Assembly (NCBI RefSeq): GCF_000421745.1
Contig: NZ_ATXP01000007.1
Coordinates: 62,001-126,000, forward strand
DNA: 64,000 nt
Reading direction: 5' to 3'
Source of the DNA: Nesterenkonia alba DSM 19423
GTDB taxonomy: Bacteria; Actinomycetota; Actinomycetes; Actinomycetales; Micrococcaceae
Of this stretch, positions 7,255 to 64,000 are shown one piece after another (the stretch's first letter is position 1; every line of letters begins with the position of its first letter). The notes beneath the pieces are model-generated. The model worked only from the letters and a program-made list of their open reading frames with translations, had not been told where the DNA came from and did not search any database. A program made the translations under genes and the position numbers.

Positions 7255-8574
7255 ATGTCACGCACCCGTTCTCTGCACTCTGACCGCCATGCCGGCCGCC
7301 GTAACCGCTCCCTCCGCCCCAGCATCCGCCTGGCCGGCGCGGGACTCATCGGCGCACTGGCCCTGACCGCCTGTGGCGGCGGTGACAACGATGACGACGG
7401 CGTCGAACTGCGCTTCGCCTGGTGGGGCTCCGATCACCGCGCCGACCTGACCTACGAGGTCATCGAAGCTTTCGAGGCCGAACACCCCGATATCACCATT
7501 GCCGGCGAATACAGCGACTGGCAGGGCTACTGGGATCAACTGGCCACCCAAACCGCAGCCCAGGATGCACCGGATGTCTTCCAGATGGATGACATGTACC
7601 TCCGCGAATACGCCGACCGGGGCACCCTGCTGGATCTCACCGAGGTCGATGTCTCCGACTTCGACGAGGCGATCGTTGACGCAGGCACCACCGAGGACGG
7701 TCTGGTTGGCGTCACCGTAGGCACCAACACCTGGACCGTGGTGGCCAACCCCGACCTATTCGAGGAGGCCGGCGTTGAGCTACCCGATGACACCACCTGG
7801 ACCTGGGAGGACTTCCACGAGATCTCCGTGGAACTCAGTGACAACCTCGAGGGCGCCTACGGGTCCACCACCGGCGGCGGGATTGCCTCCTTGCAGGCCT
7901 GGCTACGTCAGAACGGCAGCCAACTGGTCACCGAGGACGGCGAACTCGGCTTCGACGCCGCCGAGGCCGAGGAGTTCTTCCAGTACAACCTGGACATGGT
8001 CCAGGAAGGCGGCACTCCGGACCCGGCGCACCTGGCCGAGACCTGGGACGCCGGTCCGGAAGAGAGTCTCATCGGCACCAACGAGGCGGCACTGCACATG
8101 CGCTGGTCCAATGAGATGCCCAGCCTAGAGAACGCCTCGGGCGCAGAACTGCAGCCGCTGCGCCTACCCAGCCAAAGCGGCAGTGCTGAGGACAACGGAT
8201 CCTGGTACAAGCCCTCACAGTTGCTTTCGGTCTTCGCCGGCACCGATCACCCAGAGGAAGCCCAGTTGTTCATCGATTTCTTCGTCAACTCGGAGGAAGC
8301 CGCGGAAATCCTGCAGACCGAGCGTGGACTGACCCCCAACACGGACCTGCAAGAGACCGTCTTGGACAGCCTCGATGGGGCTGATCTGCGTGCCTCGGAG
8401 TTCCTGGTCGACATCGGCGATGAAGTCGGCGAGGCCGAGCCGGTGCCGCCAGCCGGCTACGGCGCCATCCAGGACATCCTGGGCCGCTATGAGCAGGAGG
8501 TCTACTTCGAACGCCAGACTCCTGCAGAAGCCGCGGAAAACTTCATTCAGGAGGCTGAAGACGCTCTGAACTGA
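7255..8574 (+). CDS. Orphan ABC sugar solute-binding lipoprotein (paralogue A)
   Basis: A 439-residue family 1 (MalE-like) extracellular SBP. The lipobox ends in LTACGGG, so Cys40 would be lipidated after signal peptidase II cleavage. ATG 7255 follows GAAGGA by 7 nt. The mature part carries LRFAWWGSD, SDWQGYWDQLATQ, DAPDVFQMDDMYLREYADRG and TDHPEEAQLFIDFFVNSEEAA, all shared with the SBPs at 8591, 16928, 37985 and 63662. It has its own promoter and a strong terminator and no permease gene nearby, so it must dock on permeases encoded elsewhere. Ligand unknown; the setting suggests a deoxyhexose or short oligosaccharide. Confidence 0.9.
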   Translation: MSRTRSLHSDRHAGRRNRSLRPSIRLAGAGLIGALALTACGGGDNDDDGVELRFAWWGSDHRADLTYEVIEAFEAEHPDITIAGEYSDWQGYWDQLATQTAAQDAPDVFQMDDMYLREYADRGTLLDLTEVDVSDFDEAIVDAGTTEDGLVGVTVGTNTWTVVANPDLFEEAGVELPDDTTWTWEDFHEISVELSDNLEGAYGSTTGGGIASLQAWLRQNGSQLVTEDGELGFDAAEAEEFFQYNLDMVQEGGTPDPAHLAETWDAGPEESLIGTNEAALHMRWSNEMPSLENASGAELQPLRLPSQSGSAEDNGSWYKPSQLLSVFAGTDHPEEAQLFIDFFVNSEEAAEILQTERGLTPNTDLQETVLDSLDGADLRASEFLVDIGDEVGEAEPVPPAGYGAIQDILGRYEQEVYFERQTPAEAAENFIQEAEDALN

Positions 8575-8586
8575 ACCCCATGACCC

Positions 8587-8631
8587 GTGAAGGGCCCGAC
8601 GTCGACAGCGCGACGACGTCGGGCCCTTCAC
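8587..8631 (+). terminator. Perfect 18-bp hairpin after SBP gene
   Basis: Positions 8587-8604 and 8614-8631 are exact inverted complements (18 bp, GC-rich centre GGGCCC) around a 9-nt loop, starting 13 bp after the stop at 8574. No long T-run follows. The right arm runs straight into the homologous part of the truncated SBP copy. Confidence 0.8.
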
Positions 8632-9733
8632 GTATATCGACTACCCCCACATCACGGTGGAACCGGAGTACAGCGACTGGCAAGGGTACTGGGACCAGCT
8701 CACCACCCAGGTAGCCGGCGGCGACGCCCCCGATATCCTTCAAATGGACGATGTCTATCTGCGGGAGTACGCCGACCGCGACTCGCTGCTGGACCTCACC
8801 GAGGTCGACACCTCTGGTCTCGATGAGAACGTGGTGGACACCGGCCGTACCGAGGAAGGCCTCTTCGGTATCACCGTGGGGACCAATGCCCTGACCATCG
8901 CGGCTAACGTGGATCTCTTCGACGAAGCCGGAATTGACCTGCCCGATGACACCACCTGGACCTGGGACGACTATTACGAACTCTCCGTGGAGCTCAGCGA
9001 GAATCTTGAGGACGCCTATGGCAGTAGCGGCGCCACCGGCGACGGGATGCTCCAAGCCTGGCTACGCCAACATGGCTCCACCCTGGTGACCGAAGAAGGG
9101 CAACTGGGACTGAGCGAGGATCAGCTGACCGAGTACCTCACCCTCACTGACGAGATGATCGCCGACGGCGGCACCCCACCTATCCAGCTGCTGTCTGAGG
9201 CCTTCGACGGCGGCATTGAGGAACGGCCGGTCAGCACGAACATGACCGCCATGGGGTCCATCTGGTCCAATGAGCTGACCAGTGTGGCCAACGCATCCGG
9301 CTCCGAGATTGAGCTGCTACGCCTGCCTAGCCAGGCTGGCACTGCCACGGAGAACGGAGTGTGGATGAAGCCCTCCCAACAGCTGTCCGTCTATGCCGGG
9401 ACCGACCATCCGGAGGAAGCCCAGTTGTTCATCGATTTCTTCGTCAACTCACCGGAGGCCGGGGAGATCCTGCTCACCGAGCGTGGCGTTCCGCCGAACC
9501 AGGAGGTTCTGGATCACATCCTCGACGACCTGGAAGGCTACGACCAGCGCTCGGCGGAGTTCCTCACCGAGATCGAAGATGAAGTCGGGGAAGCCGAGCC
9601 AGTGCCCCCGGTGGGCTTCAGTGCCGTGCCGGATATCCTCGGCCGCTACGAAGAAGAGGTCTACTTCGATCGCATGAGCGCAGAGGAAGCTGCCTCTGGG
9701 TTCATGGCAGAAGCCGAAGATGTTCTCGACTGA
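8591..9733 (+). pseudogene. 5'-truncated orphan SBP (paralogue B)
   Basis: This frame is open from after the stop at 8588 to the TGA at 9733 and is clearly homologous to the neighbouring SBP from about its residue 70 onward (YPHITVEPEYSDWQGYWDQLTTQ versus HPDITIAGEYSDWQGYWDQLATQ). The signal peptide, lipobox and first strand of the mature domain are absent; in their place is the terminator hairpin. The only candidate start is GTG 8657, without a ribosome site. The rest has no frameshift or internal stop, so the truncation is recent or the product is still used. It looks like the remnant of a tandem duplication. A cytosolic protein without export signal could not act as an SBP. Confidence 0.82.
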
Positions 9734-9785
9734 ACCGAACCGTCCGGTCAGCCCCGTGCTTAGCCCCGGAGAGGCCGGCCGGTGG

Positions 9786-10943
9786 TTAGGCGTTGGCCAG
9801 GCGAGGCCCGGCGGTGGGGTCGTAACTCCAGGAACGGATCTCCTCGGTGACATTGAGCCCCAACCCTGGTGTGTCGGGCAATTGCACCTTGCCATCGACC
9901 AGAGTGAGCGGTTCCTGCAGGGTCTGCTCCCGCAGCGGGTTCGGCACCCTGGGAACCTCCAGGTAAACCGCCGCCGGGGAGGCGGCCACCACTGTCAGGT
10001 TGGCCATCAGCCCCGGGCCGCTGCACCAGGTGTGCGGAGCCAGGCGGGCCCCGTGAGACTGAGCCAGGGCACCCAACTCGACGAGTCGGAGAATTCCACC
10101 GGTGGAGACGGCGTCGGGCTGGATGATATCCACGGCACCGGCTTCCAACATCCGCACAATGTGGTCCGGAGTGCGCTCGGCCTCCCCGAACGCCAGGCGG
10201 GTCTGCATCTCACCGCGGAGAATCGCATGGGCGTGAACTTCAGTCCGCGGTAGGGGGTCTTCGAACCAGTAGAGACGGTACGGCTCGAACCGGGCGGCCA
10301 TGGCGATCACCTGGTGCACATCCGGAGGATCCGGCAGATAGCTGGCCCCCAGGTCCACCATGAGATCACCGTCAGGACCCAGCGCCTCACGGGCCGCGGC
10401 GACGCGCTCTTCATCTCGATCCAGACCGTAGCCAATGCGGATCTTCACCGCCTGGAACCCATCGGCCACATAACCGCGCACTTCCGCGGCGAGCTCCTCA
10501 GGGTCTTCAGCGAGACCCCCGCTGGCATAGGCGGGAAGTTCTCGGCGGTAGGCCCCACCGACCAGCACGTGAGCAGGGACCCCGAGGTGCCGTCCAAGAA
10601 GGTCGAAGCAGGCAGCCTCGATCCCGCTAACCACACTCTGATACAGCCCTCCGTGCCCCCAGCTGGGAGCCGCGCGGGTGAGCTTTTCCAGCACTCCCCG
10701 CGGCTCGGCGGGCAAACCGGTGACCCGTTCAGCAGTCCAGTCAACGATGGGTCGGACCATCTGACGCACGTTGAGCCCGTCACCGATCTCCCCGTAGCCG
10801 ACGGTGCCGTCCTCACCGGTGAGGCGGATAAACCCAGAGGTCCAGCCGTCATAGCGGCCCCCGGGCCAGCCCCAGGCTTCCTGAGGGGTGTACTTATAGC
10901 TGAGCAACTCCAGCTGGCAACTGGTGATGACAGGAACCGACAT
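9786..10943 (-). CDS. Enolase-superfamily acid-sugar dehydratase (mandelate racemase group)
   Basis: A 385-residue mandelate racemase/enolase-family protein. The N-terminal capping domain is followed by a TIM barrel with the lysine motif AVKIRIG, metal ligands in LMVDLGASY, YWFEDPL and AFGEAE, and the Asp/His pair IIQPDAVSTGG and APHTWCSG. It should dehydrate a sugar acid to a 2-keto-3-deoxy acid. The aldose dehydrogenase, lactonase, FAH and Zn-dehydrogenase genes nearby point to L-fuconate or a similar 6-deoxyaldonate. The start overlaps the preceding DapA-family stop by one base (TAATG), which implies translational coupling. Exact substrate unproved. Confidence 0.85.
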   Translation of the reverse strand: MSVPVITSCQLELLSYKYTPQEAWGWPGGRYDGWTSGFIRLTGEDGTVGYGEIGDGLNVRQMVRPIVDWTAERVTGLPAEPRGVLEKLTRAAPSWGHGGLYQSVVSGIEAACFDLLGRHLGVPAHVLVGGAYRRELPAYASGGLAEDPEELAAEVRGYVADGFQAVKIRIGYGLDRDEERVAAAREALGPDGDLMVDLGASYLPDPPDVHQVIAMAARFEPYRLYWFEDPLPRTEVHAHAILRGEMQTRLAFGEAERTPDHIVRMLEAGAVDIIQPDAVSTGGILRLVELGALAQSHGARLAPHTWCSGPGLMANLTVVAASPAAVYLEVPRVPNPLREQTLQEPLTLVDGKVQLPDTPGLGLNVTEEIRSWSYDPTAGPRLANA

Positions 10944-11875: not shown

Positions 11876-11886
11876 AGTCCTCCGTC

Positions 11887-11949: not shown

Positions 11950-11964
11950 CCTTGAGGTGGTCAC

Positions 11965-15814: not shown

Positions 15815-15818
15815 CGCC

Positions 15819-16927: not shown

Positions 16928-18226
16928 TTAGTTGATGGCCTCGGTGATTTCGCGGTGGACGCCTTCGGCGGCCTCGGCAGCGCTGACCCGACCGAAGAGG
17001 AACTCCTCTTCATAGCGGAAGACGATGTCTTCCACCGCGCCGTAGCCCTCGGGCGGCAACGGCGGGGGTTCAGTGGCCACATCAGCGATGGATTCGTTGT
17101 ATTCGAGGACGTCACGTTCAATGTCGTCGAGGTCGTCACGAATGAGGTCCCGGATCGTTTCATTACCGGGGATTCCGCGTTCGATGAGTTGGATCTGCCC
17201 GGCTTCTTCGTTGTTACCCAGGAAGTCCACCAACAGCTGAGCCTCTTCGGGGTGCTCACTGCCGGAGTACACCGAGAAGAACATCGAAGCCCGGTAGAAC
17301 AACTCCGCATCAGCCGAGGAGCCCGTGGGGCTGGGCCAGCGCAAGGCCGTCAGTTCCAGATCCCCCGCTGCAGAGATCCCCACGGCATTGGCATCGAATC
17401 CCGGGCTCAAGGCCGCCTGACCCGTACCGATAAAGGTCTGCTCATTGCCCGCAGCCCGGTCCTCGGAGACTTCCTCAGCCGAGGGCAAAGCGCCGCTATC
17501 CGACATCTGTTGCAACAGGTCGAAGTAGGACTCCGCGTCCTCTGGCTGCCAACTGAGTTCCCCTTCCCCGTCGACCAGGTTGACTCCGGCGTGCTGGCGC
17601 AACCACAGCTCCAGTCCGGCATCACCGGGAGGACGCCCCAGACCATACCCGTCCGTATTGGCGGAGATCTCTGCGGTGATCTCCGTGAAGTCCTCCCACG
17701 TCCAGGTCTCGTCGTCGGGCAGCTCGAGCCCAGCCTCAGTGAACAGTTCCTCGTTAGTCACCAGCGCAAAAGAGTTCGACGTCACCGGTAGGGCATAGAG
17801 GCTGCCTTCATGCAGCCCGTTTTCCAGCAGCTCCTCGGCGTATTCGCTGGTCTCGACCGCGTCGAGTTCCAACAGGACTCCGTTTTCGATGTACTCGCGT
17901 AAGTAGCGGGTATCCATCTGAATGACATCTGGCGCATCCCCGGCAGCGGCCTGAGTGGCCAGCTGGTCCCAGTAGCCCTGCCAGTCGGCGTACTGGATAT
18001 CCACGGAGATATGGGGGTACTCCTCTTCGAAGAGGTCAACCATCTCCTGGGTGTTCTGGTAGCGCGCGTCCCCGCCCCACCAGGTAAACGAGATGGTGAC
18101 GTCTTCGGCTTCGCCGTTGCCGGCGTCGTCGTCGGAGCCTTCGGCCTCTCCCTGGGCACATGCGGAGAGCAGCAGAGCGGCGGTGCTCAGTGCACCCGTA
18201 ACCGTGAGGGCCTGTTTGAATCTCAT
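16928..18226 (-). CDS. Orphan ABC sugar solute-binding lipoprotein (paralogue C)
   Basis: A 432-residue SBP starting at ATG 18226 (AAAGGA 6 nt upstream); the frame extends to 18265 but that part is promoter. The lipobox LLSAC puts the lipidated cysteine at residue 23. The mature part has ISFTWWGGD, ADWQGYWDQLATQ, DAPDVIQMDTRYLREYIENG and SEHPEEAQLLVDFLGNNEEAG, close to paralogues A and D. There are no permease genes nearby. Its position inside the deoxysugar cluster and the TGAAGT-type site in its promoter suggest that it binds that sugar or its glycoside. Confidence 0.9.
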   Translation of the reverse strand: MRFKQALTVTGALSTAALLLSACAQGEAEGSDDDAGNGEAEDVTISFTWWGGDARYQNTQEMVDLFEEEYPHISVDIQYADWQGYWDQLATQAAAGDAPDVIQMDTRYLREYIENGVLLELDAVETSEYAEELLENGLHEGSLYALPVTSNSFALVTNEELFTEAGLELPDDETWTWEDFTEITAEISANTDGYGLGRPPGDAGLELWLRQHAGVNLVDGEGELSWQPEDAESYFDLLQQMSDSGALPSAEEVSEDRAAGNEQTFIGTGQAALSPGFDANAVGISAAGDLELTALRWPSPTGSSADAELFYRASMFFSVYSGSEHPEEAQLLVDFLGNNEEAGQIQLIERGIPGNETIRDLIRDDLDDIERDVLEYNESIADVATEPPPLPPEGYGAVEDIVFRYEEEFLFGRVSAAEAAEGVHREITEAIN

Positions 18227-18248
18227 GACGGATCCTTTGGTCGATCGC

Positions 18249-18349
18249 GATGAAATATTCATCATGGTGAAGTTGACTTCTGGAGTCTATAGTGATGCGT
18301 GCCACTCTGGCAACAGGATGTTGAAGTCTATTTCTGTATGCTGAAGTTC
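18249..18349. promoter_or_regulatory. Divergent promoter region, SBP C / FAH hydrolase
   Basis: For the minus-strand SBP a -35 TTGCCA (18308-18313) and -10 TATAGA (18286-18291) are 16 bp apart. Downstream lie TGAAGTTGACTTC (18268-18280), a short palindrome built from the same half-sites, and GATGAA-ATA-TTCATC (18249-18263). For the plus-strand hydrolase the leader has the direct repeat TGAAGTC (18322-18328) and TGAAGTTC (18342-18349), spaced exactly as at 11922-11949. Confidence 0.6.
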
Positions 18350-20351: not shown

Positions 20352-21512
20352 TTACCAGGACATCTGCGTGCCGCCGACGCGCTCGGCTTCGATCTTCTCC
20401 TGATAGCCGGACTCGGCATAGGCGCGCATCGGCTCTGCAGGCAGTCCACGGGACTCCCGCCAGGCAGCCAGGTCGGCCCGGACGTCGGTGTAGAAGGCAT
20501 CCATGAAGATCTGGTGGGCTTGAAGTACATCACCAGCCTGTTGGGCGGCGGCCAGGGCGTCCCGGTCCACCAGCAGTGCCCGGGCGGTCATCTCCTGAAC
20601 GTTGAGCACGCTGCGGATTTGCCCCGGGATCTTCTTCTCGATGTTGTGGCACTGGTCCAGCATGAAGGCGACCTCGGACTCGGGTCCGTAGCCGCCACCG
20701 CGGATCACTTCGAAGAGGATGCGGAACAGCTGGAAGGGGTCAGCGGAGCCGACGATGAGGTCGTCGTCGGCGTAGAACCGGGAGTTGAAGTCAAAGGAAC
20801 CGAGTTTGCCGACCCGCAGTAGCTGGGTGACGATGAACTCCACATTGGTGCTGGGGGCGTGGTGGCCGGTGTCGAGGCAGACCACGGCGTTGTCCCCCAG
20901 GGCCTGGACGTGCACCAAGGCGGTGCCCCAGTCCGGCACATCGGTGTGGTAGAAGCTGGGCTCGAAGATCTTGTACTCCAGGACCAGACGTTGCTCACCG
21001 CTGAGCTGGGCGTAGATTGTCTGCAGGGAGTCGGCCAGCCGGTCCTGCCGGCCGCGCATATCCGCCTGCCCGGGGTAGTTGGAGCCGTCAGCTAACCAGA
21101 TTTTCAGGTCCCGCGACCCGGTGGCGTTCATAATCTCGATGCACTCCAGGTGGTGGTCAATGGCCTTTCGGCGCACGGAGTCATCGTGATGGGTCAACCC
21201 ACCGAGCTTGTAGTCATCATCCTGGAATGTGTTGGAGTTGATCGTGCCGATCTCAATGCCCTGGTCCTGGGCGTAACGGGTCAGCGCACCGAAATCGTCC
21301 ACCTGGTCCCAGGGGATATGCAGAGCCACTTTGGGGGCCAGTCCGGTGAACCGGTGGACCGTGGCGGCGTCGGCGATTTTTTCCTCGACCGTTCGCGGGG
21401 TGCCGGGGGATCCGAAAACCTTAAACCGGGTTCCTGAGTTCCCGTAGGCCCAGGAGGGCACTTCGATGGCCTGGTGCTCCAGTTGGGGAGCAATCTCTGC
21501 GAAGGTCGGCAT
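20352..21512 (-). CDS. rhaI: L-rhamnose isomerase
   Basis: A 386-residue TIM-barrel isomerase of the Pseudomonas stutzeri-type rhamnose isomerase family. Metal-ligand segments are visible in LVLEYKIFEPSFYHTD, VVCLDTGHHAP and SFDFNSRFYADDD, the last being a hallmark of this type. It converts L-rhamnose to L-rhamnulose, the substrate of the kinase at 1-1371, so the rhamnose pathway is complete though split over 22 kb. The gene has its own canonical promoter with a LacI-type operator. Confidence 0.94.
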   Translation of the reverse strand: MPTFAEIAPQLEHQAIEVPSWAYGNSGTRFKVFGSPGTPRTVEEKIADAATVHRFTGLAPKVALHIPWDQVDDFGALTRYAQDQGIEIGTINSNTFQDDDYKLGGLTHHDDSVRRKAIDHHLECIEIMNATGSRDLKIWLADGSNYPGQADMRGRQDRLADSLQTIYAQLSGEQRLVLEYKIFEPSFYHTDVPDWGTALVHVQALGDNAVVCLDTGHHAPSTNVEFIVTQLLRVGKLGSFDFNSRFYADDDLIVGSADPFQLFRILFEVIRGGGYGPESEVAFMLDQCHNIEKKIPGQIRSVLNVQEMTARALLVDRDALAAAQQAGDVLQAHQIFMDAFYTDVRADLAAWRESRGLPAEPMRAYAESGYQEKIEAERVGGTQMSW

Positions 21513-21967: not shown

Positions 21968-22315
21968 TTAGTCGTCTTCGACGGCGGCCAGCTGCTCCTC
22001 CAAGTTGAAAACCTCTTTGAGCTCCACGAAGCCGGTGTCGGGGCGGGCGCCCTCGAGGGCCACGAAAAATTCGGCCATCTCCGCCTGCCACCGGGCGTTG
22101 ACTTCCTCGGTTTCCATGGCAGCTTGAGCGGCCTGAAGGGATTCGGTCTCGAAGTAGCCGATGAGTAGCCCATCCTCACGAATGAACAGCGAGTAGTTGT
22201 TCCACCCATTGCGCTTTAATGCGCGCAGCATCTCGGGCCACACCGCAGCGTGACGCTCGATGTATTCATCCATCCGCTCGGGTTTGACCTGGAGCTGGAA
22301 GCAGACCTTACGCAT
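21968..22315 (-). CDS. rhaM: L-rhamnose mutarotase
   Basis: A 115-residue dimeric alpha/beta-barrel protein (COG3254). It starts KVCFQLQVKPERMDEYIERH with the active-site histidine at residue 22, then HAAVWPEMLRALKRNGWNNY and LIGYFETES. It speeds anomer exchange of L-rhamnose before isomerisation. ATG 22315 has a strong AGAGGAG 5 nt upstream; the longer frame is not used. Lies 17 bp after a small membrane-protein gene on the same strand. The C-terminal extension FNLEEQLAAVEDD is slightly longer than in the E. coli protein. Confidence 0.92.
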   Translation of the reverse strand: MRKVCFQLQVKPERMDEYIERHAAVWPEMLRALKRNGWNNYSLFIREDGLLIGYFETESLQAAQAAMETEEVNARWQAEMAEFFVALEGARPDTGFVELKEVFNLEEQLAAVEDD

Positions 22316-26224: not shown

Positions 26225-27178
26225 GTGCCCCAGTACACCCCGCAGGAACTAGCCGACCACCTCAAGGACGGTCTGCTCTCTTTCCCCGTCACCGCCTTCA
26301 CACAAGACCTGCAGATCGATGAAGACGCCTACCGGGCCCATGTGAATTGGCAGGCCCGGCAGGGCGTGGCCGGGCTCTTCGCCGCCGGCGGCACCGGTGA
26401 GGGATTCAGCCTCTCGGTGGAAGAGAACGCCCAGGTGGTCCGCGCCGCAGCAGAAGAGGCCGCCGGGGCGGTGCCAGTGCTGGGCTCCGCCGGAGGTGCC
26501 ACCTACCAGGCTGTAGCCAACGCCCAGGCGGCCGAGGCTGCCGGCTGCGAGGGCCTGCTGCTGCTGCCGCCGTACCTGACCGAATGCGATCAGGCCGGGC
26601 TTGAGGCGCACGTCGACGCCGTCTGCGAGGCCACCAGCATCGGGGTCATCGTCTACAACCGAGCCAACGCGGTCTACAAAGCGGAGACCGTGGCCCGCTT
26701 GGCGGAGAAACACGAGAACTTCATCGGCTTCAAAGACGCCACCGGGGACATCGAGGCGGTCACCCGGGTGGTGGCCACCAACGGTGACCGGCTGTTCTAC
26801 CTGGGCGGACTGCCCACAGCGGAGACCTTCGCCCTACCGATGCTGCAGCTGGGGATGAGCACCTACTCCTCAGCCATGTACAACTTTGTCCCCGAGTTCG
26901 CCCTGGAGTTCTACGCCGATGTGCGCCGCCAGGACCGTGCCGCGGTGACCGAGAAACTCAACCGGTTCGTGCTGCCCTACCTTCAGATCCGTGACCGGGT
27001 GAAGGGCTACGGGGTGAGCATCGTCAAAGGAGGACTGAAGGCCGTGGGACGGGACGTTGGCCCGGTTCGCCCACCGCTGCAGGATCTCACCGAGCAGGAT
27101 GTCCAGGATCTCTCCGATCTCATCGACGCCGCCGGCATCCGTCCCACCAGTGGGGCCGAAGCACTCTCGGCTGTCTGA
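26225..27178 (+). CDS. kdgD: 5-dehydro-4-deoxyglucarate dehydratase
   Basis: A 317-residue DapA-family protein of the decarboxylating dehydratase type, converting 5-keto-4-deoxyglucarate to 2,5-dioxovalerate with loss of CO2 and water. Visible are LLSFPVTAFTQD, AAGGTGEGFSLS, IVYNRANAVY with the catalytic tyrosine, and FKDATGDIE with the Schiff-base lysine, all typical for KdgD. GTG 26225 follows AAGGGAGA by 5 nt. The next gene encodes the enzyme for its product. Confidence 0.93.
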   Translation: MPQYTPQELADHLKDGLLSFPVTAFTQDLQIDEDAYRAHVNWQARQGVAGLFAAGGTGEGFSLSVEENAQVVRAAAEEAAGAVPVLGSAGGATYQAVANAQAAEAAGCEGLLLLPPYLTECDQAGLEAHVDAVCEATSIGVIVYNRANAVYKAETVARLAEKHENFIGFKDATGDIEAVTRVVATNGDRLFYLGGLPTAETFALPMLQLGMSTYSSAMYNFVPEFALEFYADVRRQDRAAVTEKLNRFVLPYLQIRDRVKGYGVSIVKGGLKAVGRDVGPVRPPLQDLTEQDVQDLSDLIDAAGIRPTSGAEALSAV

Positions 27179-34584: not shown

Positions 34585-35495
34585 GACCGTTCCTCCTTTC
34601 CGATGGTGCGTGCGTAGACCCCCGCCAGCACGAGCACGCCGACGACGGCGAGGAACGATGTGGCCGAACCCAGGCCGTAGTCGTATCGGTTGAAGGCTTG
34701 GAGGTATCCCAGGAAGGGCAGGGTCGCTGTCGCCGTCCCCGGGCCGCCGAAGGTCATCACGTAGATGAAGTCAAAACTGCGGAAACCGTAGACGACCGTG
34801 AGCACGAAGAGCACCAGCGTGGTTCCACGCACTGCAGGGAGCATGATGTGACGGATTTCCTGGAATCGTGTGGCGCCGTCGACGGCCGCTGCTTCGAAGA
34901 TCTCCGGTGGGATGGCCATCAGCGCGGCCCGGAAAACCAGGGCGTTGAATGGGATGACGGCGAAGGCCGCCACCGAGGCGACCGAGATCAACGCCCACTG
35001 CGGGTCATAAAGGAAGGGCACCGGGCTGATCCCGATGAAGCCCAGCAGCGTGTTGACCAGTCCACTTTCGGCCAAGAGGAACTTCCATACCGAGCCATTG
35101 ACCACCGGGGGCAAGGCCCACACAAAGACCATGAGCGCTAACAGTGCTGCCGACCACCACCCCTTAGTGCGCAAGGCGATCGCCACAGCGAGGCCGAGCA
35201 GCATACCCGCGACGGTCACGATGCAGACCACCACCAGGGTGCGCACAATGGCGGCGGGACTTTCTCCGGCGGTGAAGCCGCGCAGGAAATTATCCCAGGC
35301 GACGAAATCCCAACCGCCTTGGTTCAACGTGGCCTGGGTGACGTCGTGGACGCTCATCCAGGCCAGCTGCAGCAGCGGGTAGACGGCGAAGACCGCCATG
35401 AACAGGGCTGCCGGAAGCGCGAAGATCAGGTGCCGGCGGGAGTTATGCCACCCCCGCCGGCGAGCCCGACTGGGAACAACCGGAACTGCTGTCAC
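34581..35495 (-). CDS. ABC sugar transporter permease, MalF type
   Basis: A 304-residue permease with an N-terminal basic stretch, six membrane segments and the EAA loop IPPEIFEAAAVDGATRFQEI. It overlaps both the SBP gene upstream and the MalG-type gene downstream by four bases, so the three are translationally coupled. Partner in the GH127-linked uptake system. Confidence 0.92.
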   Translation of the reverse strand: MTAVPVVPSRARRRGWHNSRRHLIFALPAALFMAVFAVYPLLQLAWMSVHDVTQATLNQGGWDFVAWDNFLRGFTAGESPAAIVRTLVVVCIVTVAGMLLGLAVAIALRTKGWWSAALLALMVFVWALPPVVNGSVWKFLLAESGLVNTLLGFIGISPVPFLYDPQWALISVASVAAFAVIPFNALVFRAALMAIPPEIFEAAAVDGATRFQEIRHIMLPAVRGTTLVLFVLTVVYGFRSFDFIYVMTFGGPGTATATLPFLGYLQAFNRYDYGLGSATSFLAVVGVLVLAGVYARTIGKEERS

Positions 35496-37984: not shown

Positions 37985-39283
37985 TCACGGAGCGCCGACT
38001 TCGGACTCCATCTCAGCGATCATGGCCTCAGCGGCCTCGGCCGGGCTCTGGCGTTCGAAGAAGACCTCAAGCTCATAGCGGCGGAGGATCTCCTGCATCG
38101 CGCTGAAGCCCATAGCCGGAACCGGCTCAGCATCCTGGGCGGCCACCTCATCCTCGATCTCCAGCAGGAACTCCGCGGAGGTCAGGTCCGGCCCGTCGAG
38201 CTCCTCGAGCACGGCCTCCCGTCCGGCCGGGTGGGAGGGCAGCCCACGGTCGGTACCGTTCATCAGGGCGACATCCTCGGAGTTGACCATCCACTCGATG
38301 AAGTCCTGGACTTCCTCTGGATGGTCGGTGCCGGCATTGGCCGACCACAGCATGGTGGACTTGAACCACATGCCGTTCTCCTCGGCATTGCCGGTCTGGG
38401 ATGGCATCCGCAGCGGCACCATGTCCACTCCAGCAGCCTCGGAGATCGCCGGCACCTGGTTGGTCCACCACATCCCCATGGCAACCTCATTGGAGCCGGT
38501 CATCGACTCATCCGGACCCGGGGTCTGGTCCTCAGCAATGACCGCAGCCGGCGGATAGGCACCCTCCTCCATGAACTGCAGGAGGTGCTCAAAGTACTCT
38601 TCGGCGTCGGCGGCGTCGAAACCGAGTTCACCCTCTTCGGTGGTCAGGTGCTGGCCCTGTTGGCGCAGCCACATCTGCAGGTCCGGCGGCTGTCCGGGGC
38701 CCGTGGCCCCATAGACGTCCTCAACCTCTTCGGTGATGGTGGCGGCGATCTCCCGGTAGTCATCCCAGGTCCAGGTGGTGTCGTCGGGAATCTCCACACC
38801 GGCCTGCTCAAAAATGTCCGGGTTGGCCAGCAGCACCATGGCGTTGATACCGGTGGTCACACCGATGAGGCCTTCGTTCTCGGTGCGACCGTTCTCCACG
38901 GCATCCTCGTCGAGCTCGGAGACGTCCACCTCGGTCAGCTCCAGCAGCTGCCCGCGCTCACCGTATTCGCGCAGGTAGTTGTCGTCCATCTGGATGACAT
39001 CGGGGCCGTCTCCGCCGGCGAACTGTGTGGCCAGTTGGTCCCAGTACCCGTCCCAGTCGCCGTACTGCGGCTCAATGCGGATTCCGGGGTTCTCTTCTTC
39101 GTAGGCCTCGATGATGTCGTAGGTGTTCTGGTGGCGAGTGTCGGAGCCCCACCAGGCCACGGTCAAGGTGATCTCGCCGTCGTCGTCTCCGCCGTTACCG
39201 CAGGCGCTCAGGGCCAGGATGCCCGCACAGGCAGCGGCAGTGAGCTTGAGAGCACGACGGCGCACAGGGGTGTTGTCAGTCAT
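37985..39283 (-). CDS. Orphan ABC sugar solute-binding lipoprotein (paralogue D)
   Basis: A 432-residue lipoprotein with lipobox LALSACGNG (cysteine 28). It carries the group signature: LTVAWWGSDTRH, GDWDGYWDQLATQFAGG, PDVIQMDDNYLREYGERG, TDHPEEVQDFIEWMVNSEDVA and the C-terminal FERQSPAEAAEAM. GAGGA lies 8 nt before ATG 39283. It has its own promoter and no permease partner, like paralogues A and C. It is downstream of the ThuA/Gfo-Idh operon, which may hint at its ligand. Confidence 0.9.
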   Translation of the reverse strand: MTDNTPVRRRALKLTAAACAGILALSACGNGGDDDGEITLTVAWWGSDTRHQNTYDIIEAYEEENPGIRIEPQYGDWDGYWDQLATQFAGGDGPDVIQMDDNYLREYGERGQLLELTEVDVSELDEDAVENGRTENEGLIGVTTGINAMVLLANPDIFEQAGVEIPDDTTWTWDDYREIAATITEEVEDVYGATGPGQPPDLQMWLRQQGQHLTTEEGELGFDAADAEEYFEHLLQFMEEGAYPPAAVIAEDQTPGPDESMTGSNEVAMGMWWTNQVPAISEAAGVDMVPLRMPSQTGNAEENGMWFKSTMLWSANAGTDHPEEVQDFIEWMVNSEDVALMNGTDRGLPSHPAGREAVLEELDGPDLTSAEFLLEIEDEVAAQDAEPVPAMGFSAMQEILRRYELEVFFERQSPAEAAEAMIAEMESEVGAP

Positions 39284-42435: not shown

Positions 42436-43596
42436 TCACTCGATGCGCCGGGCACCGGCCGAGGGCACCGCGACGAACGGACCCGGCTCGGTGTAGCCGG
42501 CTTGGGCGTAGGCATCCTGCACCGCTGCGGCGAGCCGGTCAGTGTCTCCGGTCCGCACGAGGGCGATCACACAGCCACCGAACCCGCCACCGGTGATTCG
42601 GGCGCCGTAGGCTCCGGCCTCCACCAGGGTCTCCTGGGCGAGGTCGACCTCCGGGACGGTCACCTCGTAGTCGTCCCGCAGCGAAGCGTGGGAGGCGCTC
42701 ATCAGTTCCCCGGCGGTGACCAGGTCACCGGCGGCCAGTGCCTGCCCGGTTTCCAGCACCCGTTGGTTTTCGGTGACCTGGTGGCGGACTCGCTTGCGCA
42801 GCACCTCGTCCTCAAGACGGGTGAGGACATCGCTGAGGGTCGGGGCACCGGGGTCGTTGAGTTCGCGCAGCTGGCCGATGCCCAGCAGCTCGGCGGCCTG
42901 CTGGCACTGTTGGTGGCGTGCGGCGTACTCCCCATCAACCAGCCGGTGCGGGGCCTTGGTGTCGACCACCAGGATCTGCGCACCTTCGGCGTTGAACGGC
43001 ACGATATCGGCCTCAAGGCTACGGTTGTCGAACTGCACCACGTGTCCTTCGCGGCCCAGCATGGCGATCATTTGGTCCATCAACCCGCAGGGCATGCCGA
43101 CAAAGTCGTTCTCTGCTCGCTGAGCGATCTGCGCCAAGGTGAGGGGGGCGACGTCGTGCCCGTTGAGCTCAGCGACTGCCAGCCCGGTGGAGCACTCAAG
43201 GGCCGCCGAAGAGGAGAGCCCCGCCCCCTGAGGCACCGCGGTCTCGATGACCAGGTCCGCCCCGGAGACTTCATACCCGGTCTGTTTCAGGGACCAGAAC
43301 ATGCCCAGCACATAGGCCGGCCAGCCCTGGACGGACTGCGGGTGCAAGGCTGCGACCTCGGCCTGGTGAGTCTCTCCGTTGTTCGCCGAGTGGACCCGGA
43401 TCACCCCGTCGTCGCGGCGGGCGGCCACCGCGTAGGTGGCGTGCGGTAGGGCGAAGGGCATGACGAACCCACCCTGGTAGTCGGTATGTTCTCCGATGAG
43501 GTTGACCCGGCCGGGGGCGGCCCACACGCCGTGGGGGTCACGTCCGTAGAGTTCGGTGAAGGTCTGCTTCAGCGCGGTGATGTCGACAGTGGGCAT
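42436..43596 (-). CDS. galK: Galactokinase
   Basis: A 386-residue GHMP kinase. The signature GRVNLIGEHTDYQGGFVMP is at the N-terminus, the ATP-binding PQGAGLSSSAALE in the middle and ARITGGGFGGCVIAL near the end, all diagnostic for GalK. It makes galactose-1-phosphate for GalT. ATG 43596 immediately follows the galT stop (TGAATG), so the genes are coupled. Confidence 0.97.
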   Translation of the reverse strand: MPTVDITALKQTFTELYGRDPHGVWAAPGRVNLIGEHTDYQGGFVMPFALPHATYAVAARRDDGVIRVHSANNGETHQAEVAALHPQSVQGWPAYVLGMFWSLKQTGYEVSGADLVIETAVPQGAGLSSSAALECSTGLAVAELNGHDVAPLTLAQIAQRAENDFVGMPCGLMDQMIAMLGREGHVVQFDNRSLEADIVPFNAEGAQILVVDTKAPHRLVDGEYAARHQQCQQAAELLGIGQLRELNDPGAPTLSDVLTRLEDEVLRKRVRHQVTENQRVLETGQALAAGDLVTAGELMSASHASLRDDYEVTVPEVDLAQETLVEAGAYGARITGGGFGGCVIALVRTGDTDRLAAAVQDAYAQAGYTEPGPFVAVPSAGARRIE

Positions 43597-44646
43597 TCAG
43601 GCGCTCACCTCGGCGTCGTCGGCGGTGATGGTGGTCTGGCGCAGCCGGGCGGCCATGTGCTCCGGGGGGATGTCATTGATGAAGACGCCCATCCCGGATT
43701 CGGAGCCGGCCAGGTATTTCAGTTTGTTGTCCGCCCGGCGGATGGAGAACAGTTGCAGGTGCAGGCGGAAGTCCCCTGTTGCGGAGGCCGGCGCCTGCTG
43801 CCAGCCGGAGATGTACGGCAGCGGGGTGGCGAAGAGCTTGTCCCCCCGGCGCAGCACGTCCAGGTAGAGGGTGGCGAAAGCGTCGCGTTCGGCCTCGGTG
43901 AGCTCCGGCAGGGTGCGAACGTCACGGTGCGGGTAGATGTGGATCTCCACCGGCCAGCGCGCCCATGAGGGCACAAACGCGGTCCAGTGCTCATTGCTGG
44001 CCACGATCCGTTCCCCTGCGGCCTGCTCGGCGGCCAGGGTGGTGGCGAAGAGGTCCTCACCTGTGGCCTCCCGGTGTGCCGCCGCCGAGGCGAGGATCTT
44101 TTCCGTGCGTGGGGTGATAAAGGGGTAGCCGTAGATCTGGCCGTGGGGGTGGTGCAGGGTCACCCCGATCTCCTCGCCGCGGTTTTCAAAGCAGTAGACC
44201 TGTTCCACCCCATAGTTGCCCAGCAGCGCTTCAGTCCGATCTGCCCAGGCGTCGACCACTGTGCGTAGCCGCCGGGTGTTCAGCTGCGCCAGGGAGGTGG
44301 TGTGCTCGGGGGTGAAACAGACGACTTCACATCGGCCGTGGCCCCCGGAGAAGGAGGGGAAACGATTTTCAAAGACGACGACGTCGTAGCTCGCCTGGGG
44401 CACCTCGGTGGGTCGGTCCTCTGTGGATGGGCAGAGCGGGCAACTGTCCGCTGCGGGTTTATGGGTGCGGTTCTGCCGGGCCGCAGCCACGGCGACGTAC
44501 TCGGCGAGGAACGGGTCCCAGCGCAGTTCAGAACCTCCACCGGCGTATTCGATATCCCGAGGGTCGACGACGGTGCGCTGCCTGGGTTCGTCGTCGTAGA
44601 AGAAGATCTCCCGGCCATCGGCCAGATTCGCCGTCGTCTTGTTCAT
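43597..44646 (-). CDS. galT: Galactose-1-phosphate uridylyltransferase
   Basis: A 349-residue HIT-superfamily enzyme. The zinc-site CPLCPS and active-site HHPHGQIYGYP are clear, and the C-terminal NIHIYPHRD-like segment reads VEIHIYPHRDVRTL. It transfers UMP from UDP-glucose to galactose-1-P in the Leloir pathway. GGGAG precedes ATG 44646 by 3-4 nt. The 88-bp gap to the lactonase gene contains no obvious promoter, so read-through from the De Ley-Doudoroff operon is possible. galE is not in this window. Confidence 0.97.
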   Translation of the reverse strand: MNKTTANLADGREIFFYDDEPRQRTVVDPRDIEYAGGGSELRWDPFLAEYVAVAAARQNRTHKPAADSCPLCPSTEDRPTEVPQASYDVVVFENRFPSFSGGHGRCEVVCFTPEHTTSLAQLNTRRLRTVVDAWADRTEALLGNYGVEQVYCFENRGEEIGVTLHHPHGQIYGYPFITPRTEKILASAAAHREATGEDLFATTLAAEQAAGERIVASNEHWTAFVPSWARWPVEIHIYPHRDVRTLPELTEAERDAFATLYLDVLRRGDKLFATPLPYISGWQQAPASATGDFRLHLQLFSIRRADNKLKYLAGSESGMGVFINDIPPEHMAARLRQTTITADDAEVSA

Positions 44647-59330: not shown

Positions 59331-59336
59331 GCCTGA

Positions 59337-61108: not shown

Positions 61109-62424
61109 TCGTCCACCTGCCTGTGGTAGCTGTCCGCTGCGGCCTGTAGAGCGTCTTCAGGGGCGACGTTGCCGTGGATCGCATTCAGCAGGGGACCGGC
61201 GAATGCCTCGCGCATCTGCGGTGAATTCTCCGACTGGTAATAGGGCGGTAAATCCTCCGCTGCGGGTCCATAGACCTCGAAGATTCGTTGCCCACCGAGA
61301 AATTCCGATTCAATGCTGAGGAACTCATTGGTCTGGTAAAGGTCCACCAAGGTAGGGAGGTACCCGCCGGCGTGGTAGCGCGCGAGTTGCCCTTCGGGAC
61401 TGAGGTACGTGCGGTCGAGGAAGTCAACGGCGGCGTCGGACAGGGGCTGATCGGCGACCACGCCGAAGGCTGTCCCACCGATGGTGGAGGCGATATGCCC
61501 GCCCCCAGAAAATCGAGGAATGGTCCTGGCCCGCCATAGTCCCTCTTGTTCAGGCACATTGGCCTGGAGACCGTAGGCCTCGTACCAGTTGGGCATGACG
61601 ATGGCGATGAGCCGGTCGTCCCCTAATGCGGCGGCGGTGGCACCCCCGTAGGGATCGCCCATGGAGAGGAAGGCGCCACTGCGCACCCCTTCGGCCATCA
61701 TCTCCAGAGCGTCCACGGCTTCCTCAGACACCACGGAGAGCTGCCCTTCGGCGTCGTAGAAGGAGCCGCCGCGCTGCAGCAGCATCTGCCCGAAGGACTG
61801 CACCACTGCGGTGCCGCTGTTCGAAACCATGCCAATGGCATAGCCACCGTCGGCAGCGACCTCTGCGCCGATTTCCAACATCTCTTCCCAGGTCTCGACA
61901 TCCTCTGGGATGCCTAGCTCCTCGAAGAGGTCCTGCCGGTACCACATGACGGAGATGCAGTTGTCGGATTCGATTGCGAAGACACGTCCCTCGGATGAGT
62001 AGGCTTCTGTGCGGAGGAGGTTCTCCCCGTGCTGGTCAGCTAGCGAGGTGAGGTCGACCAGGAGATTCTCGGCGATTCCGGAGCGCAGCATACGGGCGAA
62101 CTGGTCGATTTCCAGGCCCGCCATATCCGGCAGTGGTCGGCGAGCGACGGCCTGGGTAATGAGCCGGGTCACGACCCCATCTGCAGAGACGGAGGTGACA
62201 TTAACGTCAAAGTCCCATGGACTGCCCCCTACGAGTTCTTCGTCTGCCGCAGCCTGAGTGAAGAATTCGGCGTATCCGGGGTCATGGGTCCACATTTCGA
62301 TGGGTGCTTGCCCTGAGGTGACGGTCTGAGTCTCACCGACGAAACGACATCCGGTCAGCCCGACGACCCCCAGTCCGGCCAGCCCCATCGTCTGGAGCGC
62401 TCGACGCCGTGACATCGGCTTCAT
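61105..62424 (-). CDS. ABC sugar solute-binding lipoprotein
   Basis: A 439-residue SBP from ATG 62424 (AGGGGG 8 nt upstream); the longer frame is not supported. The N-terminus MKPMSRRRALQTMGLAGLG has a twin-arginine-like stretch, and VVGLTGCRF gives a lipid-anchored cysteine 26. The mature part (PIEMWTHDPGYAEFFTQAA) is a divergent family 1 SBP distinct from the orphan group. No glycosidase is attached to this operon, so the ligand is open; the shared TATCGATA operator links it to the GH42 gene. Confidence 0.91.
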   Translation of the reverse strand: MKPMSRRRALQTMGLAGLGVVGLTGCRFVGETQTVTSGQAPIEMWTHDPGYAEFFTQAAADEELVGGSPWDFDVNVTSVSADGVVTRLITQAVARRPLPDMAGLEIDQFARMLRSGIAENLLVDLTSLADQHGENLLRTEAYSSEGRVFAIESDNCISVMWYRQDLFEELGIPEDVETWEEMLEIGAEVAADGGYAIGMVSNSGTAVVQSFGQMLLQRGGSFYDAEGQLSVVSEEAVDALEMMAEGVRSGAFLSMGDPYGGATAAALGDDRLIAIVMPNWYEAYGLQANVPEQEGLWRARTIPRFSGGGHIASTIGGTAFGVVADQPLSDAAVDFLDRTYLSPEGQLARYHAGGYLPTLVDLYQTNEFLSIESEFLGGQRIFEVYGPAAEDLPPYYQSENSPQMREAFAGPLLNAIHGNVAPEDALQAAADSYHRQVDE

Positions 62425-62478
62425 CGATAAACCCCCTAGCCTGCGCCATCCCCGCACTCGACACCAATCACGCGTAAA

Positions 62479-62520
62479 TGTGATCTGAATCACTATGGCA
62501 TATCGATAAAGCACACACAA
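62479..62520 (-). promoter_or_regulatory. Promoter with TATCGATA operator and CRP/GlxR-like site
   Basis: On the minus strand TTGTGT (62515-62520), 17 bp, CATAGT (62492-62497). TATCGATA (62501-62508) lies in the spacer, so a bound repressor would exclude RNA polymerase. TGTGATCTGAATCACT (62479-62494), one base from the CRP consensus, overlaps the -10 and start region. Confidence 0.66.
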
Positions 62521-62587
62521 GAGATCTCTACAGAAGTGCAACCTCAACGATGGAGCCCCGGCACTCCCCAAGCACCTCGGGGCTGGT

Positions 62588-63607
62588 TCATCCCCCGGTG
62601 GATTCGCGGATGGCCACCGTGAAAGGCGCTCGTTCCTCATTGCCCGTCCGGGAGGGCTTCTCCATTCGGGCCAGGAGTAATTCCACGGCTCGCCGCGCGG
62701 TCCACTCATGGTCCGGAGCCACTGTGGTCAGTGAGGGAACCAGGTATTCAGACTCCGGGACGTCGTCGAACCCGGCGACCAGCAGATCCTCGGGCACGCG
62801 CACACCGCGGTCGGCCAGGCCACGGACGACCCCCAGCGCCACTGTGTCCGTGATGGCGAAGACCGCATCGGGCAGCTGCGGCGATTCGGCAATCTGCCAA
62901 CCGGCCCGGCGGCCTTCCTCCATGGTGATGAGCTGAGTCTCAAACCGCAGTGGATCCTCACCCCCGCGGGGAACCTCGAGCCCGGCGTCGGCCAGACCGG
63001 CCTCGAACCCCTCACGGCGCAGACTGAAGATGGACACCGCCTCCGTGGATGGACCTCCCACATAAGCGATGCGTCGGGCCCCGCGCTCAGCCAGATGCCT
63101 GGTCACCGCGCGGGCACCCTCCACATTGGGCAAGGCAATGTGGTCGGCGCCAGTGGGGTTATCCCGCTCCCCCAGCAGCACGATCGGGAAGGACTGCACC
63201 CCGCCGATCTTCCGCAAGTCCATATTCACCGAGGAAAGGATCAGCCCGTCATACTGCAGAGACTGGGACAACTGGATCGCATCGATCTCCCCGGCCTCCC
63301 CCGCACCGGTTTCCTCCACGGCGATGCGATACCCGGCATCCTTGGCCACTCGAGTGATGTGGGAACCGAGCGCACCGAAGTAGGGTCGGTCCAGCTCCGG
63401 AACAGCTAGTCCGATCACCCCGCTGCGCCCCGAGCGCAACTGCCGGGCCGCAGCGTTCATCCGGTAACCTGTGGCCTCGATCTGCTCTAGCACACGCCGG
63501 CGCACCGCCTCGCTGACGCCGGGGCGCCCGTTGACCACATTGGACACGGTCATTGGGGACACCCCAGCGGCGCGGGCGACATCGCTCATGGTCACTGTGC
63601 GCAGCAT
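62588..63607 (-). CDS. LacI-family transcriptional regulator
   Basis: A 339-residue LacI/GalR protein with VTMSDVARAAGVSPMTVSNVV, VIGLAVPELDRPYFGALGSH, GLILSSVNMD and LLVAGFDDVPESEYLVP. It is upstream of the third ABC operon on the same strand and probably represses it through TATCGATA; the GH42 promoter would be a second target. No clear ribosome site before the ATG. Confidence 0.9.
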   Translation of the reverse strand: MLRTVTMSDVARAAGVSPMTVSNVVNGRPGVSEAVRRRVLEQIEATGYRMNAAARQLRSGRSGVIGLAVPELDRPYFGALGSHITRVAKDAGYRIAVEETGAGEAGEIDAIQLSQSLQYDGLILSSVNMDLRKIGGVQSFPIVLLGERDNPTGADHIALPNVEGARAVTRHLAERGARRIAYVGGPSTEAVSIFSLRREGFEAGLADAGLEVPRGGEDPLRFETQLITMEEGRRAGWQIAESPQLPDAVFAITDTVALGVVRGLADRGVRVPEDLLVAGFDDVPESEYLVPSLTTVAPDHEWTARRAVELLLARMEKPSRTGNEERAPFTVAIRESTGG

Positions 63608-63661
63608 GTCTAAGACGCTACGTCAGGTCTGACCAGAACGGGTGGTACGACGCCGACTTCA

Positions 63662-64000
63662 TCACTCCCCTACGGCGTCAGAAGCTTCTGCCACCACAGC
63701 TTCAGCAGCCTCCGCGGGACTCATCCGCTCGAAGTAGACCTCCTCGGAGTAGCGGCCCAGGATATCCTGCAGCGCGCTGGCCCCCATAGCGGGAACCGGC
63801 TCGGGGTCCTGGGCCTCGATGTCCGGTTCGATCTCATCCATCCACTCAGCCACGGCGAGGTCATTGCCCTCCAAATCGGCGACGACGGCGTCGCGCACCT
63901 GTTCATTGGCGGGCAGTCCACGGTCCATACCCTGAGCCCGGCCGGCCTCTTCGTTGTTGACCAGGCAGTCGATAACCGCCTGGGTCTCCTCCGGGTGGTC
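63662..64000 (-). CDS. Orphan-type ABC solute-binding protein (paralogue E), 3' end only
   Basis: The last 112 codons of an SBP whose start lies beyond the window. The visible part reads DHPEETQAVIDCLVNNEEAG, LADLEGNDL-like VVADLEGNDLAVAEWMDEI and DILGRYSEEVYFERMSPAEAAEAVV, which matches the C-terminus of paralogues A to D. It has a cysteine in DCLVNN where the others have phenylalanine or tryptophan. Directly upstream of the LacI gene on the same strand. Whether permeases accompany it cannot be seen. Confidence 0.85.
   Translation of the reverse strand, partial: DHPEETQAVIDCLVNNEEAGRAQGMDRGLPANEQVRDAVVADLEGNDLAVAEWMDEIEPDIEAQDPEPVPAMGASALQDILGRYSEEVYFERMSPAEAAEAVVAEASDAVGE

What the first reader, a model, noticed from the sequence alone, without database searches (positions are those of the whole stretch)
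7255..64000. A family of at least five paralogous sugar-binding lipoproteins with no adjacent permeases
The SBPs at 7255, 8591 (truncated), 16928, 37985 and 63662 share the segments D-x-GYWDQL-TQ, PDV-QMD--YLREY and HPEE-Q and a common C-terminal pattern, while the three SBPs that sit with permeases lack these. The three complete orphan genes have or appear to have their own promoters and operators; none has a permease next to it. The simplest model is interchangeable receptors feeding one permease pair encoded elsewhere, each switched on by its own sugar. This would be an unusual hub-and-spoke ABC uptake system.
Basis: partly seen in the sequence, partly recalled or inferred. Interest (0 to 1): 0.78.

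Follow-up and report, generated by a model that had tools for sequence, protein, structure and literature searches.

The report
Twenty-odd sugar receptors, one permease
This Nesterenkonia bacterium appears to feed about twenty different, scattered sugar-catching lipoproteins into one shared membrane importer for plant-wall sugar acids, an unusually large case of a known but uncommon receptor-swapping design.

Summary
The genome (Nesterenkonia, 2.59 Mb draft) holds 36 solute-binding proteins (SBPs); 21 form one branch, and none of the 21 has a PF00528 permease domain within 2.2 kb, whereas all 15 others have one within 1.3 kb. Of 11 sugar-type (CUT1) permease pairs, exactly one lacks an SBP: C5:153500-155414, outside the window. 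I take that pair as the hub. Support: homologous pairs elsewhere carry an SBP of this family next door (65 of 74 named non-hub loci); SBP and permease trees single out the same three non-Nesterenkonia genomes as closest; within the genus, 100 of 101 family SBPs (E<=1e-100) lie in the 11 of 30 genomes with the hub. The closest solved relative is Bacillus subtilis YesO, receptor for rhamnogalacturonan fragments. On the YesO map, residues holding the unsaturated galacturonate are conserved among the 21, while residues facing the other two sugars are hypervariable (a split made after a first look). Best reading: one YesPQ-like permease, driven by a shared ATPase, served by about 20 receptors that clamp a uronate and differ in the rest. 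Orphan SBPs sharing a permease are known; scale, family and joint inheritance look new. No function was tested.

The parts
7255..8574 (+). Orphan YesO-like SBP lipoprotein (spoke; C7:69255-70574)
   Evidence: Member of the 21-SBP branch; nearest PF00528 domain 25 kb away
8591..9733 (+). Truncated tandem copy of the SBP at 7255; no signal peptide, lipobox or first part of the mature protein; probable pseudogene
   Evidence: Translation with stops shown; paired with 7255 in the tree
16928..18265 (-). Orphan YesO-like SBP lipoprotein (spoke; C7:78928-80265)
   Evidence: neighbours are a zinc dehydrogenase and a FAA hydrolase
37985..39283 (-). Orphan YesO-like SBP lipoprotein (spoke; C7:99985-101283); the permease pair at about 33.8-35.4 kb has its own unrelated SBP at 35492
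   Evidence: AF2 model pLDDT 89.8, best fold match YesO
63662..64000 (-). 3' part of an orphan YesO-like SBP (spoke) that continues to C7:126948 beyond the window
1408..3447 (-). Class II aldolase/short-chain dehydrogenase fusion, sugar catabolism near spoke 7255 (rhamnulose-1-phosphate aldolase type, label recalled)
   Evidence: Pfam Aldolase_II and adh_short
20352..21512 (-). L-rhamnose isomerase (RhaI)
   Evidence: NCBIfam TIGR02635 619 bits, cut-off 531
21968..22315 (-). L-rhamnose mutarotase family protein (RhaM)
   Evidence: Pfam PF05336
23967..25100 (+). L-talarate/galactarate dehydratase (oxidative uronate pathway)
   Evidence: NCBIfam NF047820 685 bits, cut-off 500
26225..27178 (+). 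5-dehydro-4-deoxyglucarate dehydratase KdgD (oxidative uronate pathway)
   Evidence: NCBIfam TIGR03249 382 bits, cut-off 374
42436..44646 (-). Galactokinase and galactose-1-phosphate uridylyltransferase, in the same-strand gene run upstream of spoke 37985
   Evidence: Pfam GalKase/GHMP kinase and GalP_UDP_transf

Best explanation
A hub-and-spoke type I sugar importer. The hub is one CUT1 permease pair of the YesPQ type (C5:153500-154435 and 154428-155414, outside the window), presumably energised by the free-standing MalK-type ATPase at C5:7048-8193. The spokes are 20 (perhaps 21) YesO-like lipoproteins scattered over the genome near different catabolic or glycan-cleaving genes. Each would catch a different uronate-containing oligosaccharide from pectin-like polymers, gripping the uronate with a shared subsite and reading the other sugars with a diversified one, and deliver it to the same permease. 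Shown: gene inventory, lack of adjacency, co-inheritance with the hub, matching trees, the residue pattern. Inferred: docking, transport, the ligands, use of the shared ATPase.
For: (1) Inventory: 21 of 21 family SBPs have no PF00528 domain within 2.2 kb, 15 of 15 other SBPs have one within 1.3 kb; the hub is the only one of 11 CUT1 pairs without an SBP. (2) Ancestral pairing: among 74 named non-hub loci with a homologous permease (from the best 80 of 426 kept), 65 have an SBP matching the family model within 1.6 kb. (3) Trees: 11 Nesterenkonia hubs are one clade (100), joined with G352, G273 and G293 (99); in the SBP tree 39 of the 42 Nesterenkonia rows labelled orphan fall in one clade (100) whose 7 other rows all come from those three genomes. 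(4) Co-inheritance: 100 of 101 family SBPs (E<=1e-100) lie in the 11 hub-bearing genomes of 30; on a ClpX tree of 27 of the 30, over 7 independent contrasts SBP presence goes with the hub in 6.7 on average, against it in 0 (median p 0.016, range 0.016-0.031). (5) G352 has one family SBP and one such permease, with a P-loop ATPase, read by eye, between them within about 10 kb. (6) YesO is the closest solved protein by sequence (332 bits) and by fold; nine anchor residues are conserved in the spokes (mean entropy 0.77 against 1.48 bits for all sites, P 0.006) and eleven outer residues hypervariable (2.49; 0 of 50000 random sets as high) (contacts from PMC7596534 Table 1). (7) Galactarate dehydratase and KdgD in the window, a pectate-lyase-like protein beside one spoke.
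Against: No binding, docking or transport was measured. A family SBP occurs without the hub in G021. One of the 21, C5:178572, and two SBPs of G003 group with SBPs of other lineages in the wider tree. Two of 31 family SBPs in four near-closed relatives lie within 1.5 kb of a CUT1 permease. All 21 YesO contact sites taken together are not more variable than other sites (P 0.12); the split into anchor and outer residues was made after seeing that result. The outer residues are also above average, and the anchor below, in the relatives from other genera (P 0.003 and 0.009). Neighbouring catabolic genes need not name the ligands. Permeases of other types (CUT2) were not searched; a CUT2-looking set with its own binding protein lies 9 kb before spoke 7255 (C7:56538-60530, read by eye). 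The genome is a 36-contig draft (98.5% complete).
Confidence: 0.8

Rival explanations
1. Promiscuous network: the orphan SBPs dock to several of the ten other CUT1 permease pairs, whichever is expressed, rather than to one hub.
For: Ten other CUT1 pairs exist and some lie 2-3 kb from spokes.
Against: Each of the ten has its own SBP outside the family; spokes share ancestry with SBPs that sit beside hub-type permeases and are inherited with the hub.
Confidence: 0.1
2. Surface capture or sensing: the orphan lipoproteins bind glycans at the cell surface or signal, and most do not deliver to a permease.
For: No adjacent permease; SBPs that activate sensor kinases are in print (PMC11113362, listing and start of abstract only).
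Against: It gives no reason for the co-inheritance with one permease pair. Adjacent sensor kinases were not searched for.
Confidence: 0.07
3. Decaying redundancy: duplicated SBPs with the same ligand, many on the way to loss, like the truncated copy at 8591.
For: One truncated tandem copy in the window; neighbouring pairs at C8:58881/60205 and C2:218839/220402.
Against: 20 of 21 are open frames of 404-445 codons; the others aligned are 39-57% identical to the SBP at 37985 yet keep the anchor residues; several have their own close partner in G003, G015, G020 or G022.
Confidence: 0.08
4. Missing data: dedicated permeases sit in assembly gaps.
For: Draft genome of 36 contigs.
Against: In four relatives of 1-3 contigs, 29 of 31 family SBPs also lack a CUT1 permease within 1.5 kb.
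Confidence: 0.02

Closest known systems
YesOPQ of Bacillus subtilis (rhamnogalacturonan-fragment importer, thought to be energised by MsmX or YurJ; PMC7596534: section 9 and passages; PMC5730181: passages)
   Same: YesO is the closest solved SBP by sequence and fold; a separately encoded MalK-type ATPase; pectin-related genes nearby.
   Different: yesO lies with its permease genes, one receptor per pair; here the pair has no receptor beside it and about 20 receptors lie elsewhere.
Cbc choline/betaine/carnitine transporter that recruits multiple SBPs (Chen et al. 2010) and the commentary 'Homes for the orphans' (Thomas 2010)
   Same: SBPs with distinct ligands share one core permease.
   Different: Quaternary ammonium compounds and a few receptors (number recalled). 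Both works seen only as reference-list entries of PMC12838199.
DppA1-5 with DppBCDF of Pseudomonas aeruginosa (PMC12728205: passages)
   Same: Five receptor paralogues with different ligand profiles, one permease; one receptor gene is distant.
   Different: Peptides; four of five receptor genes stay beside the permease.
Bifidobacterium LT-SBP orphans (PMC8110962: passages) and Athe_0597/0598 of Anaerocellum bescii (PMC12838199: passages)
   Same: Sugar SBPs that are orphan in some strains, or two SBPs in one transporter locus.
   Different: One or two receptors rather than about twenty; use of distant membrane parts by the Bifidobacterium orphans is only suggested there.

Membership tests
CUT1 carbohydrate ABC importer, YesOPQ-like | SBP homologous to YesO | tested here: met
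   332 bits to 5z6b, E 6e-98; top three Foldseek hits 4r6k, 5z6c, 5z6b
CUT1 carbohydrate ABC importer, YesOPQ-like | Pair of MalF/MalG-type permeases of the YesPQ lineage | tested here: inconclusive
   MalF/UgpA and MalG/UgpE/GlcU relatives, all below NCBIfam cut-offs; homologous pairs in Bacillaceae and other phyla sit beside SBPs of this family; no direct comparison with YesP/YesQ was made
CUT1 carbohydrate ABC importer, YesOPQ-like | SBP encoded with the permease pair | tested here: not met
   In the 11 Nesterenkonia hubs the nearest full-length family SBP seen is 2.6 kb or more from the pair (G015), two or more genes away, or not in the 15-20 kb read
CUT1 carbohydrate ABC importer, YesOPQ-like | Binding of an unsaturated-galacturonate oligosaccharide | not testable with these tools
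   Only residue conservation at YesO contact sites
Shared-permease (orphan SBP) system | Several separately encoded SBPs of one family | tested here: met
   21 in this genome
Shared-permease (orphan SBP) system | One permease pair that lacks its own SBP or is shared | tested here: met
   C5:153500-155414 lacks an adjacent SBP
Shared-permease (orphan SBP) system | Genetic or biochemical proof that several SBPs feed the permease | not testable with these tools
   Needs deletion or reconstitution
Shared multipurpose ATPase (MsmX/MsiK type) | Free-standing MalK-type ATPase | tested here: met
   Two OB_MalK ATPases found: one with the C9 permease set, one alone at C5:7048-8193; orthologue at 79% or more in 25 of 30 genus genomes, own included

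The most novel reading that the evidence does not exclude
A receptor repertoire on one channel: a single uronate-oligosaccharide permease served by about twenty receptors that share a uronate-clamping subsite and have diversified the outer subsites, spread as scattered plug-in genes beside different glycan loci and gained or lost together with the hub across the genus. Adding a sugar to the diet would then need one receptor gene, not a transporter.
Probability: 0.5. Interest if true: 0.78.

Novelty: new variant of a known kind. Interest (0 to 1): 0.63.

Why it matters
If true, it is the largest receptor-to-permease ratio that I know of in a sugar ABC importer (from memory, not surveyed), and a natural system for asking what on an SBP is read by the permease (shared) and what by the ligand (diversified). 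It would also correct transporter annotation: counting permeases would miss about 20 uptake specificities, and orphan SBPs could be assigned to a permease by co-inheritance.

Tried and rejected
A second lone pair at C12:47654-49254 as another hub: it follows a P-loop ATPase and a different binding protein and gave no match to the hub permeases; read by eye as a phosphonate-type importer. The motifs as chance or a general CUT1 signature: rejected by the tree and by 0 of 15 other SBPs carrying them. A shared operator linking hub and spokes: the hub site GGAAAGCGATTTCC is conserved, with variants, in the hub promoters, but in the stretches of this genome that were scanned only one spoke (C7:131302) carries it within one mismatch, so no regulon is claimed. 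Operators at the window genes: not beyond chance. The first ClpX tree was wrong because about half of the loci were in reverse orientation; replaced (the Fisher figure printed does not use the tree). Limits: one search scored only 4 candidates per genome and its counts are not used; searches scored at most 30 and 58 candidates per genome, so their counts may be low in genomes with more; listings were cut and are not used for adjacency counts; distances are between stop-to-stop frames. Lone permease loci L079, L084, L086, L090 and L134 were not followed. Searches for a described system of this kind; none of the listed titles or abstract starts told of a Nesterenkonia or YesO-family shared-permease system, but the library lacks most subscription journals.
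Full report
WHAT WAS CLAIMED.

CHECK. The window is C7:62001-126000 of a 2.59-Mb, 36-contig genome, 98.5% complete. The nearest named relatives of its hub permease are in Nesterenkonia. All five SBPs are present; the one at 63662 runs past the window end, and the one at 8591 lacks its N-terminal part. The three window SBPs that sit with permeases lack the motifs. Own operators are not supported for the three complete genes.

GENOME-WIDE INVENTORY. A PF01547 search gave 36 SBPs and a PF00528 search 51 permease domains. I called genes with a simple script on fetched stretches around all 36 SBPs. In a quick tree of the 36, 21 form one branch (SH-aLRT 99, stem 0.85 changes per site, which warns of long branches among the other 15). 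For 21 of 21 the nearest PF00528 domain is 2.2 kb or more away, or there is none on the contig; for 15 of 15 others it is within 1.3 kb (Fisher p 1.8e-10, treating related genes as independent). All 51 PF00528 domains lie in stretches that I fetched. With the two C5 permeases as queries, 11 CUT1 pairs come out: the C5 pair and ten that each have one of the 15 other SBPs; the PF00528 loci fetched gave no match at E 1e-3. The C5 pair (C5:153500-155414) has no SBP beside it: upstream lie 0.4 kb and a divergent enolase-superfamily gene, downstream a Gfo/Idh/MocA oxidoreductase and an NAD-dependent epimerase-family protein. Read by eye from protein starts, this gene order recurs in other hubs and in G273, G293 and G352.

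WHO PAIRS WITH WHOM ELSEWHERE. A scan of named genomes with the hub permease kept the best 80 of 426 loci. Six are Nesterenkonia hubs. Of the other 74, 65 carry an SBP matching the family model within 1.6 kb of the permease (Arthrobacter, Isoptericola, Microbacterium, Paenibacillus, Bacillaceae, Devosia and others), 4 (a second, 66-69% identical Nesterenkonia system) at about 4 kb, and 5 show none, three of them on contigs under 10 kb. In the 11 Nesterenkonia hubs the nearest full-length family SBP is 2.6 kb or more from the pair, or not in the 15-20 kb read.

MATCHING TREES. In a quick tree of both permeases (53 loci chosen from those fetched) the 11 Nesterenkonia hubs form a clade (100), joined with G352, G273 and G293 (99). 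In a quick tree of 97 SBPs one clade (100) holds 46 rows: 39 of the 42 Nesterenkonia rows labelled orphan (one of the 42, G003:1645021, lies 1.4 kb from another CUT1 permease), among them 20 of this genome's 21, and 7 rows that all come from G273, G293 and G352. Outside it lie C5:178572 of this genome, two SBPs of G003, and one further SBP of G273. G352 has one family SBP and one such permease, within about 10 kb, with a P-loop ATPase (by eye) beside the SBP: a complete set.

CO-INHERITANCE. Of the 30 genomes held for the genus, 11 have the hub at 82% identity or more. At E<=1e-100 those 11 (G000, G003, G007, G008, G009, G015, G020, G022, G023, G024, G026) hold 21, 14, 8, 9, 11, 9, 4, 3, 6, 11 and 4 family SBPs, in all 100; the other 19 hold one, in G021 (Fisher on presence p 2e-7, printed, treating genomes as independent). 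At E<=1e-60 three hub-less genomes hold 1, 2 and 3 (G010, G021, G029); these carry the second system. On a ClpX tree of 27 of the 30 genomes (G007 and G025 gave no match; G016, a broken match, was left out) the hub needs 9 changes; over 7 independent contrasts the SBPs follow in 6.7 on average, never the other way, median p 0.016. Near sisters G015 (hub, nine SBPs at scattered places) and G010 (no hub, no SBP at 1e-100, one at 1e-60) illustrate it. In the four near-closed relatives G003, G015, G020 and G022, 29 of 31 family SBPs (E<=1e-60) have no CUT1 permease within 1.5 kb, so the pattern is not an assembly gap.

WHAT THEY MAY BIND. The closest solved protein is YesO of B. subtilis, also first in a fold comparison with an AF2 model of the SBP at 37985 (pLDDT 89.8). 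From Table 1 of PMC7596534 (section 9 read) I took 21 residues touching the trisaccharide. Taken together they are no more variable in the spokes than other sites (P 0.12). After that look I split them by the sugar they touch: nine that hold the unsaturated galacturonate are more conserved than average in the 21 spokes (entropy 0.77 against 1.48 bits, P 0.006), eleven that face rhamnose and galactose far more variable (2.49; none of 50000 random sets as high); Trp52, which touches two sugars, was left out, and Gln255, which touches all three, was counted as outer. Without C5:178572 and the truncated copy the result holds (P 0.007 and 2e-5). In 35 relatives from other genera (two of 37 left out as too distant; most, not all, beside a homologous permease) the same trends appear more weakly (anchor 1.36 against 2.02, P 0.009; outer 2.62, P 0.003). 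Gln255 is Gln in 30 of the 35 relatives and is the site whose variability rises most in the spokes.

CONTEXT. Genes beside or near spokes include an L-rhamnose isomerase, a galactarate dehydratase and KdgD above NCBIfam cut-offs, galactokinase and its transferase, GH35, an arabinofuranosidase C-terminal domain, a sulfatase, two GH106, a GH43 and a pectate-lyase-like protein beside spoke C5:185055. This fits pectin-type carbohydrate and different partners for different spokes; it does not fix any ligand, and some of these genes may belong to neighbouring systems.

ENERGY. Two OB_MalK ATPases were found, one with the C9 permease set, one free-standing at C5:7048-8193, the latter with an orthologue at 79% or more in 25 of 30 genus genomes, with or without the hub. 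A shared ATPase, MsmX, is proposed for YesOPQ in B. subtilis (PMC5730181, passages).

VERDICT. The hub-and-spoke model is the best-supported reading (0.8). The principle is in print (PMC7731109 passages; reference entries for Thomas 2010 and Chen 2010 in PMC12838199); the number of receptors, the sugar family and the joint gain and loss are what would be new. I found no description of it in the searches.

Noticed in passing
G000:C5:153380-153503 and the hub promoters of 10 other Nesterenkonia genomes: All 11 hub promoters share TTGAC...CTTAC.GT and an operator-like site (GGAAAGCGATTTCC in 8, variants in 3). In 10 of 11, and in two sister-genus hubs, a short leader reading frame (MLS[QRH]... 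in 7) ends on the permease start (ATGA overlap); in G026 no such frame was found.
   Followed up: partly
L061 (G021:C15:8999-10267): A family SBP stranded between housekeeping-looking genes in a genome without the hub; a leftover, or a user of the 69%-identical second permease pair.
   Followed up: partly
L079, L084, L086, L090, L134: Homologous permease pairs without an SBP in the stretch held, in metagenome-assembled genomes (Propionibacteriaceae, another actinomycete, a spirochaete): possible further hubs.
   Followed up: no
G273, G293, G332, G390: Other Micrococcales genomes have one hub-type permease (E<=1e-60) and 4-7 family SBPs, most of those examined not adjacent to a permease: possible intermediate stages.
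   Followed up: partly
window 8575-8640: A long hairpin (GAAGGGCCCGACGTCG...CGACGTCGGGCCCTTC, seen by eye) lies between the SBP at 7255 and its truncated copy, like a terminator fused to the middle of the second gene.
   Followed up: no
G000:C5:178572-179876: The one family member of this genome that groups with SBPs of other lineages (Microbacterium, Cellulomonas, G042) in the wider tree although it is also an orphan.
   Followed up: no
whole genome G000: Nested sharing: about 31 sugar-type SBPs (21 plus the ten beside CUT1 pairs), 11 CUT1 permease pairs and two MalK-type ATPases.
   Followed up: partly
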